Below, piece after piece: positions 22,167 to 27,376 of a stretch of 64,000 bases of DNA. The position numbers and the translations under genes were made by a program. Every line of letters starts with the position of its first letter. Within the stretch, counting starts at the first letter, position 1. Source of the stretch: an uncultured SAR86 cluster bacterium (GTDB lineage: Bacteria > Pseudomonadota > Gammaproteobacteria > Magnimaribacterales > AG-339-G14). The notes beneath the pieces are model-generated. The model saw only the letters and a program-made list of their open reading frames with translations. It was not told the DNA's origin and searched no databases. The stretch spans positions 65,054 through 129,053 of the forward strand of contig CACFWO010000002.1 in the NCBI GenBank assembly GCA_902570035.1, given 5' to 3'.

Positions 22167-23594
22167 TTAAAATCTTGCGTTCTGTCTTTTTCTGCTGCCG
22201 TGCTTAAAGTAAACATCCTTGGCAATTTTTTTAAATTCCCTGTTTGCTCTTGACGCCCAAATTGTTTCTCTAGCTTTTTTCGCTGAGAGCACAGGGTCAA
22301 CTAATTTCTCAAAATATAGATCGTTCAATTCTGCATTGTGAATTTTGTCTCTACACATATTCGAAATTTTTGGTATTTGTGCTTTTATCCAGTCTGCATT
22401 TGGATCTTGATCTTTGCTTTGCTTAAGAACCGAATAAATTCTAGGTAGGTTTATTCCGGTTACTCCGCTTTGCATTTGAACTTGGCAAATATGAATTCCC
22501 GGCTCGTAATCTACAAACAACTCTGCGAGGAGAGGTGACGTTCTTTGCCAAGGCTGCCATAAGTTATATGAAGCAAAAGACATAATCATGGCTCTCATTC
22601 TAAAATTGATCCAACCTCCTTTTCTCAAATACTGAATGCATGCATCAAGAAATGGAAACCCTGTTTCTCCTATAATCCATTTTTCTATAAGCTCATTGTT
22701 TGCGTCTTGTCTTAATTCATCCGCCATAGGATGCATAGAGTTAAACTCAAGTTCGGGTTCTGTCTCAAGCTTTTGGATGAAATGACAGTGCCAATAAAGC
22801 CTTTTTTTGAAAGAATTTAAGTCTTTTTTGTAACCAGTTATTTCTAACTCTCTAAGAAGTTTTTGATAAATCTCTCTTATGGAAACAGAACCAAATGCAA
22901 TATGCGGGGAAAGCCTTGAGCATGAATGCTCAGCCTCATGCGGCGATGACATCTTAAAACTGTATCCTGCGCACCTTTCTTTCAAGAAGCTATCTAACAA
23001 GCTATAAGCAAGATCAGAGCCTCCCGATTGAAATGATGAGTATTTGCTCTTTTGGAATTGAAGATTTTTTAAAAATAAATTTAATGGTTTTAAAGGTTTA
23101 TCTATCTTGTTTATATTTTGGTTTGTATAAGGTTCTTTGAGTAAAGGTTTACTCATTTGATCTTCCCAATCACTTGCCCATTTATCTCTATTAGGGGCCT
23201 TAACTTGAATCCCAAAATCTGAATAGAGCTTTATTTTCTCTTTTTTTAAAAAATTATCTCGAAAACTATTGAAGTCATCTCTGAAATAACCAACATCAGT
23301 GCAATGATTAGCATGAATGATTGATTCTGAAAAATGAGTTTCAATCCACTTTTGGAAATCAAGATAATTTCCTGAAAATACATAAATTTGAGAATTTTTT
23401 TCTTTAAGCTTTTGATCCAAATCTTTCAAGCAATCGAAAAGAAAATTTAATTGAATTTCCGATTTACCATTTGCTTGCCAATAGTTTAGATCGTAAAGAT
23501 AAACAACTCCATAATCTTGATTCTTTGATCCATGAAATAATGCAGGATTATCAAACATCCTTACATTTCGATGAATCAACACAATATCTTTCAT
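22167..23594 (-). CDS. Cryptochrome/photolyase family protein
   Basis: The N-terminal alpha/beta antenna domain begins LIHRNVRMFDNPAL (residues 6-19). The C-terminal FAD domain has SRLSPHIAFGSVSIREIY (226-243), GETGFPFLDACIQYLRKGGW (309-328) and RMRAMIMSFASYNL. In place of the canonical class I DxDxANN...WQW block it has DYEPGIHICQVQMQSGVTG (362-380), the form seen in a photolyase/cryptochrome subgroup whose lesion specificity I cannot assign. Length 475. It is divergent from the TPR gene and lies close to two other repair genes. Confidence 0.88.
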   Translation of the reverse strand: MKDIVLIHRNVRMFDNPALFHGSKNQDYGVVYLYDLNYWQANGKSEIQLNFLFDCLKDLDQKLKEKNSQIYVFSGNYLDFQKWIETHFSESIIHANHCTDVGYFRDDFNSFRDNFLKKEKIKLYSDFGIQVKAPNRDKWASDWEDQMSKPLLKEPYTNQNINKIDKPLKPLNLFLKNLQFQKSKYSSFQSGGSDLAYSLLDSFLKERCAGYSFKMSSPHEAEHSCSRLSPHIAFGSVSIREIYQKLLRELEITGYKKDLNSFKKRLYWHCHFIQKLETEPELEFNSMHPMADELRQDANNELIEKWIIGETGFPFLDACIQYLRKGGWINFRMRAMIMSFASYNLWQPWQRTSPLLAELFVDYEPGIHICQVQMQSGVTGINLPRIYSVLKQSKDQDPNADWIKAQIPKISNMCRDKIHNAELNDLYFEKLVDPVLSAKKARETIWASRANREFKKIAKDVYFKHGSRKRQNARF

Positions 23595-23672
23595 GGGAAA
23601 TGAATCTTATATCCTTAATTCATTTATATTCATATAAAAATATATATTCAAATAAAGTGGTAAATTAAAGTT

Positions 23673-24110
23673 ATGAAAAACATATTTTTAATAATTATTT
23701 TGATAACAACACAAAGTATTTTTGCTGCAAGTTACAACAAGCCTTCTGCCTCGAAACTTTATAAAGAAGCAGTGGAGTTAGTAAAAAAAGAACAATTCGA
23801 AAGTGCAATTAAAAAACTCACAAAATACACCAAAAAAAAGCCAAAGGACTCAGACGGGTGGACGTTATTGGCATTTTCAAATAGAAAAATAAGTGAGTTT
23901 GATAAAGCAAAGGAATTTTATGAAAAAGCAATAGCTATCGATGAAAACAATAAAACCGCCTTGGAATATCAAGGAGAGTTCTTTGCTCAAATCGGTGAAA
24001 TGGAAAAAGCCAAAGAAAATTTAGAGAAATTGCTTTCTCTCTGCCCAAACTCATGCAAAGAATATGAGATGCTGAAGGATTATATCAGCGGTAAGGCAAA
24101 AAAAAGCTAA
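23673..24110 (+). CDS. Exported tetratricopeptide-repeat protein
   Basis: A Sec signal peptide (MKNIFLIIILITTQSIFAAS) precedes about three TPR units with the usual A/G-Y-A pattern, for example SDGWTLLAFSNRKISEFDKA and KTALEYQGEFFAQIGEMEKA. Total length is 145. Such small periplasmic TPR proteins act as binding scaffolds; no partner can be named. It ends 10 nt before the alkyltransferase gene, so it may share a transcript with the repair genes. Confidence 0.8.
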   Translation: MKNIFLIIILITTQSIFAASYNKPSASKLYKEAVELVKKEQFESAIKKLTKYTKKKPKDSDGWTLLAFSNRKISEFDKAKEFYEKAIAIDENNKTALEYQGEFFAQIGEMEKAKENLEKLLSLCPNSCKEYEMLKDYISGKAKKS

Positions 24111-24120
24111 GCTAGAGTTC

Positions 24121-24399
24121 ATGATCGGTACATCATTTCAAAAGAAAGTCTGGAAAGAATTAAAAAAAATTCCTTATGGCGAAACCAGATCTTACAAGGA
24201 AGTCGCTCTTGCAATTGGTCATCCTCAATCCGCAAGAGCAGTTGCTAATGCTTGTGCCAAGAACCCGTATGCGCCCACAGTCCCGTGTCATAGAGTAGTT
24301 AGATCTGATGGCAATTTAGGCGGCTACAGCGCTAAAGGTGGCATCAAAAAAAAGGCAGAACTTTTAAGAATGGAAAGCCAAAATGTACGCAAAAGATAA
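24121..24399 (+). CDS. O6-alkylguanine-DNA alkyltransferase domain, stand-alone
   Basis: At 92 residues this is only the C-terminal DNA-binding and active-site domain of Ogt/Ada-type alkyltransferases. It contains PYGETRSYKEVALAIGHP, ARAVANACAKNP and the intact active-site motif PCHRV, then GGYSAKGG. The cysteine is retained, so it is not an ATL protein, in which it is replaced by tryptophan. It could repair O6-methylguanine by suicide transfer. It overlaps the next gene by 17 nt and sits in a repair cluster. Confidence 0.9.
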   Translation: MIGTSFQKKVWKELKKIPYGETRSYKEVALAIGHPQSARAVANACAKNPYAPTVPCHRVVRSDGNLGGYSAKGGIKKKAELLRMESQNVRKR

Positions 24400-25525
24400 T
24401 ACTAAAAACCTGTTTAAATTAGCTAATTCAGTTTCTGAAAATTTTGTCTCTAATAATTTATTGGACTATCAAGGACTAAGAAATTACGATTACGGACCTG
24501 AAAAAAGAGATAATGTTTCTTGTTTGTCGCCTTTTATTACCCACAGACTTATCCTTGAACAAGAACTGATAAAAAGGTCATTAGATTTCTACCCATTTGC
24601 AAAAATAGAAAAATTTATCCAAGAGATATACTGGAGAACTTATTGGAAAGGTTGGTTGGAATTAAGGCCAGCTGTCTGGGAAGATTTTATTTCTGAAAGA
24701 GTAGAGATATACGATGAAACCGTTTATGAAAAAGCTATTAATGGCAATACAGGGATTGATTGCTTTGATTTTTGGATCAATGAATTAAAAGAAGAAAATT
24801 ACCTTCATAACCATACGAGAATGTGGTTCGCAAGTATCTGGATTTTTACCCTAGGCCTTCCTTGGCAGCTAGGGGCTGAATTCTTTATGAAATATTTATT
24901 GGATGGAGATGCAGCATCAAACACTCTCAGTTGGCGGTGGGTTGCTGGCATCCAAACAAAGGGCAAGCACTACATTGCTAGACCATCAAACATATCAAAA
25001 TTTACCGACGGTAGATTTCATCCAAAAGGATTGAACACTGTTGCCGAATCCTTAAATGGAGAAAAAGAATATTTAAAAGAGCCTTTAGACCTGACATTCA
25101 ATGAAACAAAAAAAAATAACACTCTGGTGATGTTTGAAAATGACCTATGGCTTGAGGGGAGAGAAAACCTCTATAAGAGCTATGAAAATATATATTTGAT
25201 TCTGTTAACTAATGCTGACAGAAAAATAGAATTAGATGAAAAAGTATTGGCTTTTAAAAAGAAAGCTCTTAACGATGTGCAAACTTATCTTGATAATTCT
25301 TCTTTGGAATCGCCGGAGAGGTTACAGCAACATAAGTCGTTTGATGTTGTCTATCCGTCTGTTGGTGAAAATCTAGATTACTTAAGAGAGGTTCAGAAAA
25401 TAAATAATACGGATATCAACTTTATAACTCGCGAAGAAGACGTTTTTTGTTGGGAGTTTTCAAATAAGGGGTTCTTTAATTTTAAGAAAAATATTCCTGA
25501 TATCTTGAAAAAATTCTCTTATTAA
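24383..25525 (+). CDS. Photolyase FAD-binding domain protein lacking the antenna domain
   Basis: Nearly the whole protein corresponds to the C-terminal helical FAD domain of photolyases: VSCLSPFITHRLI (45-57), KFIQEIYWRTYWKG (77-90), TRMWFASIWIFTLGLPW (145-161) and the key LLDGDAASNTLSWRWVAGIQ (172-191). The N-terminal Rossmann-like domain that binds the antenna pigment is missing: residues 1-44 are too short to hold it, and the start overlaps the alkyltransferase gene. Length 380. It may be a light-driven repair enzyme without antenna, a partner of the photolyase at 22.2 kb, or a photoreceptor. Confidence 0.85.
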   Translation: MYAKDNTKNLFKLANSVSENFVSNNLLDYQGLRNYDYGPEKRDNVSCLSPFITHRLILEQELIKRSLDFYPFAKIEKFIQEIYWRTYWKGWLELRPAVWEDFISERVEIYDETVYEKAINGNTGIDCFDFWINELKEENYLHNHTRMWFASIWIFTLGLPWQLGAEFFMKYLLDGDAASNTLSWRWVAGIQTKGKHYIARPSNISKFTDGRFHPKGLNTVAESLNGEKEYLKEPLDLTFNETKKNNTLVMFENDLWLEGRENLYKSYENIYLILLTNADRKIELDEKVLAFKKKALNDVQTYLDNSSLESPERLQQHKSFDVVYPSVGENLDYLREVQKINNTDINFITREEDVFCWEFSNKGFFNFKKNIPDILKKFSY

Positions 25526-25540
25526 TTAAATTTGATATAG

Positions 25541-27376
25541 ATGACATTTAAATTAGCTTTCAAATATCTGCTTCGACTAATTTTATTGGCTCTTTTGGCA
25601 ATTTCGATTTATTTAGTAAATCTTTTTTTCATGAAGCCTTTTTCAATAGATCATTTTCTGGCCAAAGAAACTTTTCTTGAAATAATTGATTCACCTGAGT
25701 CAATGACTTACATAGGTATTTTTGACAAATACAATTGGTTTACCGGTCATGCTTCAAAATTAACCATTCCAAGTCAGAAACAATTAGATCGCGACAAAGC
25801 GAAAGCAAGAAAGATTTTAGATACTTTAAGATCTTATGACGATGAAAATCTAAGCAGCATCCAAAGAGCTTCAAAAAAAATAGCTATTTTCGATACTGAG
25901 AATACCTTGCTGAGATTAGAGACTTTCCCTTTCCATAACTATGTTCTCAACCAGATAGGTGGCGCTCACATTGATATGGTTGAATTCATGACAGATACTC
26001 ACCCAATTAGAAATTTATCAGAAGCAAAAGCTTACATAGACAGAGTCAGATTATTTGAGAATGTTTTTGAAGGACATCTGTATGAATTAAATGGCCAAAA
26101 AGCCATTGACTTTTATGCGCCAAAATTTGTTTACGAACGAGTCATTGTCCAGCTTGATGAATTTCTAAACTTCTCATTTGAGGAGCATCCTATCTATACA
26201 GAATTTGATAGAAAAATTAAGGATTTAAACTTTTCAGAAAAGCAGAAAACTCAGTTACGAGAGAACCTAAAACAAGCAATCAGACAAAGCATCGATAAAG
26301 CGTTTAGGCTGATGAAAGATTATTTGGTGTCGACTCAAGCGCAGGCAAATAATAATCATGGGCTATGGTCTCAACCAAGCGGAGATAAATATTATGAGTT
26401 GAGAATAAGAACTTATACAACTACTGATTATTCGCCTCAAGAAATTCACGACATGGGTCTTAGCGAAGTAGAGCGAATCAGCAAGAGGATGAAAACTATC
26501 CTGACCCAATTAGGATATAAACAAGACAAGTCTGTGGGTATTTTAATGAATGAGTTAAATGAGGATCCGCAATTTCTCTACGACGATACTCCTGACAGAA
26601 AACAGATTGCTATTAAAGATTATTCTGAAATGGTTGATGAGGCATACGTTGTTTTAGAAAAATATTTTCACACCATGCCGAAATCCAAAGTTATCGTTAA
26701 AGCAGTTCCAGAGTACTCAGAAAAAACCGCAGCGGGCGGATATTACAGGTCGCCTGCGTTGGATGGAAGTCGGCCGGGCGTTTTTTATGCAAATTTGTAC
26801 GACATCAAACAAACCCCTAAGTACGGCATGAAAACACTTGCCTATCATGAGGCTATACCAGGTCATCACCACCAAATAGCCCATTCTTTAGAAAATGAAG
26901 ATCTAACTTATTATCGAAAATTTGGCTATCGAACTTCGGCATTTTCAGAAGGATGGGCTCTCTATGCTGAACAGCTCGCCTTGGAGGCTGGTTTAGCTGA
27001 CAATCCTTTGGATGAATTAGGTATTTTGCAAAGTGAACTTTTCAGAGCGGTCAGATTGGTTGTAGATACAGGAATGCACTATAAAAAATGGACTCGTGAA
27101 AAAGCTATGGCGTACATGAAAGCAAAAACTGGAATGTCTGATACTGAGGTGAGAGTTGAGATAGAACGTTATATTGTATGGCCAGCTCAGGCGCTTAGTT
27201 ATAAAGTCGGTATGATAAAAATACTTGAGCTAAGAAAAAGAGCTCAAGATGCCTTAGGCGAAAAGTTCAACATTAAAGACTTTCACTCTGCTCTCTTGGA
27301 TCATGGCAGTCCTCCTCTTTTCATTGTCGAAGAGAAAGTAAAAGACATGATTAACAATGCAAAGTTGTTGAATTAA
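25541..27376 (+). CDS. DUF885-family putative metallopeptidase, membrane-anchored
   Basis: One N-terminal membrane helix (about residues 10-30) is followed by a long helical domain. The conserved motif HEAIPGHHHQ lies near residues 436-445, and the surrounding TLAYHEAIPGHH and FSEGWALYAEQLA blocks match the DUF885 family, which resembles M1/M32-like zinc peptidases. Length 611 is typical. The active domain would face the periplasm or outside and could hydrolyse peptides; no family member's substrate is known to me. Confidence 0.85.
   Translation: MTFKLAFKYLLRLILLALLAISIYLVNLFFMKPFSIDHFLAKETFLEIIDSPESMTYIGIFDKYNWFTGHASKLTIPSQKQLDRDKAKARKILDTLRSYDDENLSSIQRASKKIAIFDTENTLLRLETFPFHNYVLNQIGGAHIDMVEFMTDTHPIRNLSEAKAYIDRVRLFENVFEGHLYELNGQKAIDFYAPKFVYERVIVQLDEFLNFSFEEHPIYTEFDRKIKDLNFSEKQKTQLRENLKQAIRQSIDKAFRLMKDYLVSTQAQANNNHGLWSQPSGDKYYELRIRTYTTTDYSPQEIHDMGLSEVERISKRMKTILTQLGYKQDKSVGILMNELNEDPQFLYDDTPDRKQIAIKDYSEMVDEAYVVLEKYFHTMPKSKVIVKAVPEYSEKTAAGGYYRSPALDGSRPGVFYANLYDIKQTPKYGMKTLAYHEAIPGHHHQIAHSLENEDLTYYRKFGYRTSAFSEGWALYAEQLALEAGLADNPLDELGILQSELFRAVRLVVDTGMHYKKWTREKAMAYMKAKTGMSDTEVRVEIERYIVWPAQALSYKVGMIKILELRKRAQDALGEKFNIKDFHSALLDHGSPPLFIVEEKVKDMINNAKLLN

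What the first reader, a model, noticed from the sequence alone, without database searches (positions are those of the whole stretch)
22167..25525. DNA-repair island with an antenna-less photolyase
A full photolyase/cryptochrome, a bare 92-residue alkyltransferase domain and a photolyase FAD domain without the antenna domain lie within 3.4 kb, the last two overlapping by 17 nt. Two non-identical photolyase-type proteins plus coupling of light-dependent repair to alkyl repair is unusual. The FAD-only protein may be a distinct light-dependent enzyme or sensor, possibly needing the alkyltransferase or an antenna in trans.
Basis: partly seen in the sequence, partly recalled or inferred. Interest (0 to 1): 0.55.

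Follow-up and report, generated by a model that had tools for sequence, protein, structure and literature searches.

The report
Inverted-order photolyase beside divergent cryptochrome gene
A gene that looked like a light-driven DNA-repair enzyme missing half of itself is a complete enzyme of a known type with its two halves in swapped order, and the odd photolyase-like gene beside it repeatedly turns up next to this or a similar-acting enzyme in unrelated bacteria.

Summary
The three genes are real and correctly placed, but "antenna-less" is wrong. The 380-aa protein is intact: an N-terminal photolyase FAD domain followed by a C-terminal alpha/beta domain (AlphaFold pLDDT 92.8). [quoted passage not shown] The CPD-photolyase pocket residues checked, bar R342, are kept in 34 of 34 aligned homologues. 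It occurs in 9 of 9 genomes of this SAR86 genus and in Alphaproteobacteria. The C-terminal domain is probably a degenerate antenna domain in swapped order; direct evidence is moderate, but Deinococcus relatives keep a recognisable antenna there. The alkyltransferase neighbour (17-nt overlap) is genus-specific: 9 of 9 here, none in 69 other loci. What recurs is the other neighbour, a 475-aa photolyase-like protein with a rebuilt active site (E274R, N341F, M345A, N378H, W384M; 20-21 of 21 rows). In a 398-genome Pseudomonadota draw, 25 of 34 genomes with it also have NewPHL or DASH, and in 11 of 34 one of the two lies beside it; no genome has both NewPHL and DASH. So the FAD-only gene is a new member of a known kind; the partner family is the less explained part.

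The parts
24383..25525 (+). NewPHL/Phr7-type photolyase, 380 aa: FAD domain (res ~1-229) then C-terminal alpha/beta (Z) domain (res ~236-380)
   Evidence: Pfam PF03441; AF2 pLDDT 92.8; 34-member alignment; tree clade 100/99; CPD active-site residues kept
25088..25525 (+). C-terminal alpha/beta (Z) domain, probably a degenerate, relocated antenna domain
   Evidence: AF2 alone pLDDT 94.1; VIA-align: 33 of 50 rows shown are photolyases or cryptochromes; hhalign score 17.0 vs maximum 13.0 in 200 shuffles
22167..23594 (-). divergent cryptochrome/photolyase-like protein, 475 aa, antenna then FAD domain, active site rebuilt
   Evidence: Pfam; R265, F331, A335, H368, M374 at E. coli positions 274, 341, 345, 378, 384; clade 100/100
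24121..24399 (+). short O6-alkylguanine alkyltransferase domain (ogt), 92 aa, PCHR cysteine kept; overlaps next gene by 17 nt
   Evidence: PF01035 6.1e-35; the only PF01035 match in the genome as held
23673..24110 (+). TPR protein (N terminus looks like a signal peptide by eye), co-directional with ogt
   Evidence: Pfam TPR; neighbour conserved in this genus
25541..27376 (+). DUF885 protein, 15 nt downstream, same strand; conserved in the genus
   Evidence: PF05960

Best explanation
The 380-aa protein is a complete photolyase of the NewPHL (Phr7) type. The N-terminal FAD domain binds a flipped-out cyclobutane pyrimidine dimer and splits it by electron transfer from light-excited reduced FAD. 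The C-terminal alpha/beta domain forms the second lobe and is a degenerate antenna domain that follows, instead of preceding, the catalytic domain. By analogy with characterised NewPHLs it should act on single-stranded DNA and stand in for DASH-type photolyase, which these genomes lack. Shown here: architecture (predicted structure), intactness, residue conservation, distribution, no DASH over the cut-off. Inferred: CPD chemistry, single-strand preference, FAD and antenna pigment state, how the lobes pack. The alkyltransferase is a probably co-transcribed neighbour in one SAR86 genus, not a partner of the enzyme class.
For: Full-length in 9 of 9 genomes of this genus and 4 of 5 of genus g3, and in 22 further genomes of 398 in the phylum. 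In 34 of 34 aligned homologues E274, W277, N341, R344, M345, W359, N378, W382 and W384 (E. coli numbering) are identical to class I CPD photolyase. Fold matches photolyase FAD domains, Z up to 16.6. FAD domain then Z-domain is the order reported for Phr7, there cited as an ssDNA CPD photolyase class (PMC9426592 section 5; PMC13274461 passages). 0 of 40 genomes tested, 35 of them with NewPHL, have DASH over the TIGR02765 cut-off; 0 of 398 have both. C-terminal domain: structure, profile score above 200 of 200 shuffles, and Deinococcus proteins of the same order whose C-terminal domain matches the antenna profile at E 4.7e-8.
Against: R342 is His in 33 of 34, and the distal Trp (W306) has no fixed counterpart. 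Pfam finds PF00875 in none of 33 C-terminal domains; hmmsearch of PDB sequences with them finds no photolyase; hhalign probability is about 4% for the direct comparison and 7% against the Deinococcus set; VIA best Z is 7.3, a level the tool calls common. Absence of DASH together with NewPHL is not significant alone (expected 2 of 398, P of zero 0.12). The founding papers (Emmerich 2020; Xu 2021) are not held and were not read, and the reference NewPHL sequences were not compared.
Confidence: 0.85

Rival explanations
1. The 380-aa gene is a decayed or truncated photolyase that lost its N-terminal antenna domain.
For: No PF00875 match in the protein.
Against: Full-length open homologues in SAR86 g3 and in Alphaproteobacteria at 34-54% identity, with invariant catalytic residues and one shared C-terminal domain.
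Confidence: 0.02
2. The protein is a light sensor (cryptochrome) with no repair activity.
For: The genome already has a class I photolyase (L001) and a PhrB-like protein (L004). R342 and W306 are not kept.
Against: The other CPD-pocket residues checked are invariant in 34 of 34; relatives of the same architecture are reported to repair CPDs (PMC9426592).
Confidence: 0.1
3. The FAD-first protein works as a complex with the alkyltransferase domain (17-nt overlap = obligate co-translation).
For: The overlap is kept in 9 of 9 genomes of the genus, even where the cry and TPR genes are missing (L008, read from match ends).
Against: No alkyltransferase match in the fetched flanks of 69 other NewPHL loci, some of them short; in G010, G016, G022 and G399 it is elsewhere, and G013 has NewPHL but no PF01035 match.
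Confidence: 0.04
4. The C-terminal Z-domain is an unrelated Rossmann-like domain recruited independently, not a moved antenna domain.
For: Unrelated Rossmann-type chains reach similar Z (7q5y 6.9, 4p4l 5.9); Foldseek ranks other families first; direct sequence signal is weak.
Against: In VIA-align the 33 photolyase rows align 101-140 of 145 residues, the 17 other rows 82-119; profile score 17.0 over 153 columns against at most 13.0 in 200 shuffles; Deinococcus proteins in the same order clearly have antenna domains (E 4.7e-8; PF00875 in L175 and L174 at 7e-4 and 2e-4, both under Pfam's cut-off).
Confidence: 0.2

Closest known systems
NewPHL photolyases (Emmerich et al. 2020, NAR; cited in PMC9426592 and PMC13274461; original not read)
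   Same: N-terminal FAD domain, C-terminal small domain, CPD-type residues, bacterial; in genomes without DASH (the last tested here)
   Different: Found here in SAR86, beside a divergent cryptochrome-like gene and, in one genus, overlapping ogt; activity untested
Prochlorococcus Phr7 (PMC9426592)
   Same: Same domain order; no conserved Fe-S cysteines; nearest there to Phr4/Phr6
   Different: Host lineage; not compared by sequence here
Phr4/Phr5 and Phr6 of marine Synechococcus/Cyanobium (PMC9426592)
   Same: FAD domain before antenna domain, as one or two genes; Deinococcus L174-L176 look alike
   Different: Those are reported to keep a recognisable antenna domain and Fe-S cysteines; the SAR86 protein has neither
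DASH cryptochromes (TIGR02765)
   Same: Reported ssDNA CPD photolyases; same neighbour (cry-like gene)
   Different: Antenna-first order; M345 is Gln and W384 is Tyr in 8 of 8
Phr1 of picocyanobacteria / Vibrio cholerae cryptochrome (possible home of the 475-aa protein; a lead, not tested)
   Same: Antenna-first photolyase-like protein; relatives of the 475-aa protein occur in Vibrio
   Different: No Phr1 or V. cholerae sequence was compared

Membership tests
NewPHL / Phr7 | FAD domain N-terminal, small alpha/beta domain C-terminal | tested here: met
   (predicted structure)
NewPHL / Phr7 | CPD-photolyase lesion-pocket residues | tested here: met
   E81, W84, N143, M147, N180, W186 invariant in 34 of 34; R342 is not kept; which residues form the pocket is recalled
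NewPHL / Phr7 | No conserved Fe-S cysteines (stated for Phr7) | tested here: met
   No Cys among invariant or nearly invariant columns of A2
NewPHL / Phr7 | Clade with D. shibae (A8LJA9) and M. mesophilicum (M7YZC8) reference proteins | not tested
NewPHL / Phr7 | Light-dependent CPD repair on single-stranded DNA | not testable with these tools
   bench assay
DASH cryptochrome | TIGR02765 curated cut-off (317 bits) | tested here: not met
   380-aa: 50.8 bits; 475-aa: 87 bits
Class I CPD photolyase | antenna domain N-terminal to FAD domain | tested here: not met
   380-aa protein has the opposite order
O6-alkylguanine alkyltransferase (92-aa protein) | DNA-binding domain with acceptor Cys in PCHR | tested here: met
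   PF01035 119 bits, cut-off 27; PCHRV read in the sequence; that alkyltransferase-like proteins have Trp there is recalled
CPD photolyase of any class (475-aa protein) | E274, N341, M345, N378, W384 | tested here: not met
   R, F, A, H in 21 of 21 rows and M in 20 of 21; DASH and PhrB-like rows also depart at some of these

The most novel reading that the evidence does not exclude
The neighbouring 475-aa protein belongs to a distinct branch of the photolyase superfamily with a rebuilt active site (Arg, Phe, Ala, His and Met in place of the CPD set; the Trp next to FAD lost). It works together with a single-strand photolyase, which may be NewPHL or DASH, so NewPHL has displaced DASH in the same gene neighbourhood. 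It may handle a different photoproduct or a follow-up step: in Deinococcus it is fused to uracil-DNA glycosylase, which would fit removal of uracil left after reversal of deaminated dimers.
Probability: 0.3. Interest if true: 0.7.

Novelty: new member of a known kind. Interest (0 to 1): 0.42.

Why it matters
It settles a seemingly incomplete photolyase of abundant surface-ocean bacteria (SAR86, Pelagibacter-type) as a complete inverted-order enzyme. It adds evidence that the C-terminal domain of this class is a relocated antenna domain. It also gives a testable link between two single-strand photolyases of different topology and one conserved neighbour with an unusual active site, which points to a function that no annotation met here names.

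Tried and rejected
Truncation: rejected (intact homologues). Alkyltransferase coupling as a general feature: rejected. Sequence detection of PF00875 in the C-terminal domain: none in 33 members at E <= 1; PDB hmmsearch with the domain: one unrelated hit, E 0.25. Persicobacter C-terminal domain as a bridge: not above the shuffles against A4 (13.6 vs 17.3) or A5 (15.4 vs 23.4), and barely above them against the Deinococcus set (18.7 vs 16.7; 60 shuffles each), so it is not used. Foldseek of the C-terminal domain alone put a phosphopantetheine adenylyltransferase and spermidine synthases first, no match under E 0.001, one photolyase (5kcm) in the 50 rows shown. Promoter and terminator scan: no excess over shuffles. 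A first residue table used numbering shifted by one and was redone.

Literature searches: circular permutation/antenna terms, short photolyase/SAR11, NewPHL, photolyase with uracil-DNA glycosylase and Deinococcus, SAR86 photolyase, DUF2256 photolyase (no paper), DASH/gene cluster/LitR, Vibrio/CRY2/triad. From titles and abstract starts I noticed none about the cry-like/NewPHL/DASH neighbourhood; only PMC9426592 (section 5, first part of section 10, passages), PMC9649867, PMC9498864 and PMC13274461 (passages each) were opened, so this is no proof of novelty.

The Cyanobacteria, home of Phr1-Phr7, could not be searched.
Full report
WHAT IS THERE. The window lies in a genome of 1.14 Mb in 18 contigs; loci with the same gene order at 83-96% protein identity are titled SAR86. 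Gene order: D-2-hydroxyacid dehydrogenase (-), 475-aa photolyase-like protein (-, 22167-23594), then on the + strand TPR (23673-24110), ogt (24121-24399), the 380-aa protein (24383-25525) and DUF885 (25541-27376). Spacing on the + strand is 10 nt, 17-nt overlap, 15 nt, so an operon is likely (inferred). PF03441 finds four photolyase-superfamily genes in the genome: a class I photolyase (L001), a PhrB-like protein with a DPRP domain (L004), and the two in the window.

THE 380-AA PROTEIN IS COMPLETE. One contig scan gave 50 loci that encode relatives: 6 titled SAR86 (83-96%), 1 Hellea, 43 others titled Alphaproteobacteria or Pelagibacteraceae. 41 of the 50 reading frames end in a stop inside the locus and 9 run off its end. 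A named relative is on the Ruegeria sp. TM1040 megaplasmid (36%). Among 41 near genomes (own included) full-length matches occur in 9 of 9 of this genus and 4 of 5 of genus g3; the other genomes match only partly, at 35% identity or less, or not at all. In a 398-genome Pseudomonadota draw 23 have the family; the window genome is the only one of its own class among them. In a 190-genome draw of the class of G399, 16 have it, 3 with a stop inside the match. From what was fetched I aligned 34 members; catalytic columns are invariant. AlphaFold2 with that alignment gives pLDDT 92.8, pTM 0.91. VIA-align places about residues 1-229 on photolyase FAD domains, Z 13.5-16.6 in the 50 rows shown.

ACTIVE SITE. 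Aligned to E. coli photolyase (L170), 34 of 34 members keep E274, W277, R278, N341, R344, M345, W359, D372, D374, N378, W382 and W384; R342 is His in 33 of 34; W306 has no fixed counterpart (which corrects the shifted numbering). The roles of these residues are recalled, not from a call. This is the class I CPD set. DASH rows differ at M345 (Gln) and W384 (Tyr), 8 of 8 each.

THE C-TERMINAL DOMAIN. Folded alone it has pLDDT 94.1 with five strands alternating with helices. Foldseek is uninformative. VIA-align of Foldseek's 1000 best chains gives 33 photolyase or cryptochrome entries among the 50 rows shown. They align 101-140 of 145 residues, in most rows within the N-terminal antenna domain of the chain; in five rows, the top one (1iqr) included, the range runs into the rest of the chain. 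The 17 other rows align 82-119. Z is at most 7.3, unrelated rows reach 6.9, and the tool warns that such Z is common. Profile comparison with 17 antenna domains: E 0.01, probability 4% with the tool's settings; in the script, score 17.0 over 153 columns, against at most 10.0 (100 column shuffles) and 13.0 (100 block shuffles) and 4.3 for the reversed profile. Help comes from Deinococcus proteins L175, L176 (FAD domain then C-terminal domain) and L174 (two overlapping genes). Their C-terminal domain matches the antenna profile at E 4.7e-8, 95%; Pfam sees PF00875 at 7.2e-4 in L175 and 2.3e-4 in L174, both under its cut-off, and not in L176. The SAR86-type domain scores 22.9 against them, over 16.8 at most in 60 block shuffles, but with E 0.005 and probability 7%. 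A relocated, degenerate antenna domain is the best reading, not proven.

WHAT IS KNOWN. PMC9426592 (section 5 and the first part of section 10 read) describes Phr7 of Prochlorococcus as N-terminal FAD domain plus C-terminal Z-domain and says, citing Emmerich et al. 2020, that this type is an ssDNA CPD photolyase; it also describes Phr4/5/6 with reversed order. PMC13274461 (passages) speaks of NewPHLs or SPLs with inverted topology; [quoted passage not shown] The original papers are not held. The tree of 89 FAD domains puts all 34 members in one clade (100/99), beside the Deinococcus and Persicobacter proteins with weak support (89/65); Persicobacter has a long branch, and the tool warns of long-branch joins. 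That only the window genome has NewPHL in its class in the 398-genome draw suggests transfer between marine lineages (inference).

NEIGHBOURS. PF01035 gives one match in 13 of 18 genomes searched: next to NewPHL in 9 of 9 of this genus, elsewhere in G010, G016, G022, G399; none in G013 (NewPHL present), G009, G011, G012, G019. tblastn of ogt (E <= 1e-5) hits 8 of 77 fetched NewPHL loci, all of this genus; many flanks are short. The cry-like gene lies beside NewPHL in 8 of 9 genomes of the genus (window plus seven loci; L008 lacks cry and TPR), in 1 (L011, Hellea, tandem) of the 44 other loci, in 2 (L142, L148) of 21 fetched loci (22 found, one not fetched), and in 0 of 4 g3 loci. In Persicobacter (Bacteroidota) an apparent operon holds a FAD-first protein outside the NewPHL clade, the cry-like gene and a PhrB-like gene (L173).

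THE CRY-LIKE FAMILY. In the 398-genome draw 34 genomes have it (E <= 1e-70), 34 have DASH over the cut-off, 23 NewPHL. None has both NewPHL and DASH (expected 2; P 0.12). Of the 34 cry-like genomes, 9 have NewPHL, 16 DASH, 9 neither; 25 of 34 against 32 of 364 (Fisher P 8e-17, not corrected for relatedness). One of the 9 without (G166) has a divergent DASH below the cut-off that falls in the DASH clade. In fetched regions of about 8 kb each side (at least two cut by contig ends) there is DASH in 8 of 34 (G166 included; L237 holds broken reading frames) and NewPHL in 3 of 34, each beside the cry-like gene or one or two small genes away; PhrB-like in 11 of 34. The order DASH, cry-like, DUF2256, PhrB-like recurs in L220, L224, L226. 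Against a fixed pairing: in 6 of 9 genomes with both, cry-like and NewPHL lie apart; with DASH, 9 of 16 apart; and SAR86 relatives G009, G011, G015 have the cry-like gene without NewPHL. Still, two topologically different photolyases, both reported as single-strand enzymes, occupy the same slot. In 21 of 21 rows chosen from those fetched (two are identical in the tree) E274 is Arg, N341 Phe, M345 Ala, D374 Glu, N378 His; W382 is Val, Phe, Met or Ile in 19; W384 is Met in 20. The nearest solved proteins by profile are photolyases, the best at 227 bits. In Deinococcus psychrotolerans the protein is fused to uracil-DNA glycosylase (Pfam); 7 of 7 Deinococcus plasmid records with a match list UDG under it. 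Its function is unknown; the pairing is the open question worth following.

VERDICT. The finding given to me is a NewPHL, known as a class, with a genus-specific alkyltransferase neighbour. Interest is moderate because of the recurring partner.

Noticed in passing
L128:3956-6238 (Deinococcus psychrotolerans plasmid): Cry-like photolyase fused to a C-terminal uracil-DNA glycosylase domain in one reading frame; 7 Deinococcus records list UDG under the match.
   Followed up: partly
L174:2857-4148; L175:2312-3682; L176:2324-3742: Deinococcus photolyases with FAD domain before antenna domain, in L174 as two overlapping genes, resembling Phr4/5 and Phr6 of marine Synechococcus as described in PMC9426592.
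   Followed up: partly
L220, L224, L226, L231, L142, L217, L225 and others: A DUF2256-like short protein matches in 14 of 34 cry-like regions, often directly beside the gene; a search for DUF2256 with photolyase found no paper.
   Followed up: no
L230, L233, L237: Photolyase islands with four superfamily members (class I, PhrB-like, DASH, cry-like) side by side.
   Followed up: no
L022, L037, L038, L039, L043: NewPHL homologues on contigs titled Alphaproteobacteria carry Asn/Thr runs of varying length near residue 40-50 (seen).
   Followed up: no
L238:1057-12315; L239:2102-13539: In two g3 SAR86 genomes ogt and the cry-like gene lie about 9.5 kb apart, away from NewPHL, so the linkage of ogt and cry may be older than that with NewPHL.
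   Followed up: no
L008 (G007): The cry and TPR genes are missing while the ogt/NewPHL overlap is kept, a clean two-gene difference within the genus.
   Followed up: no
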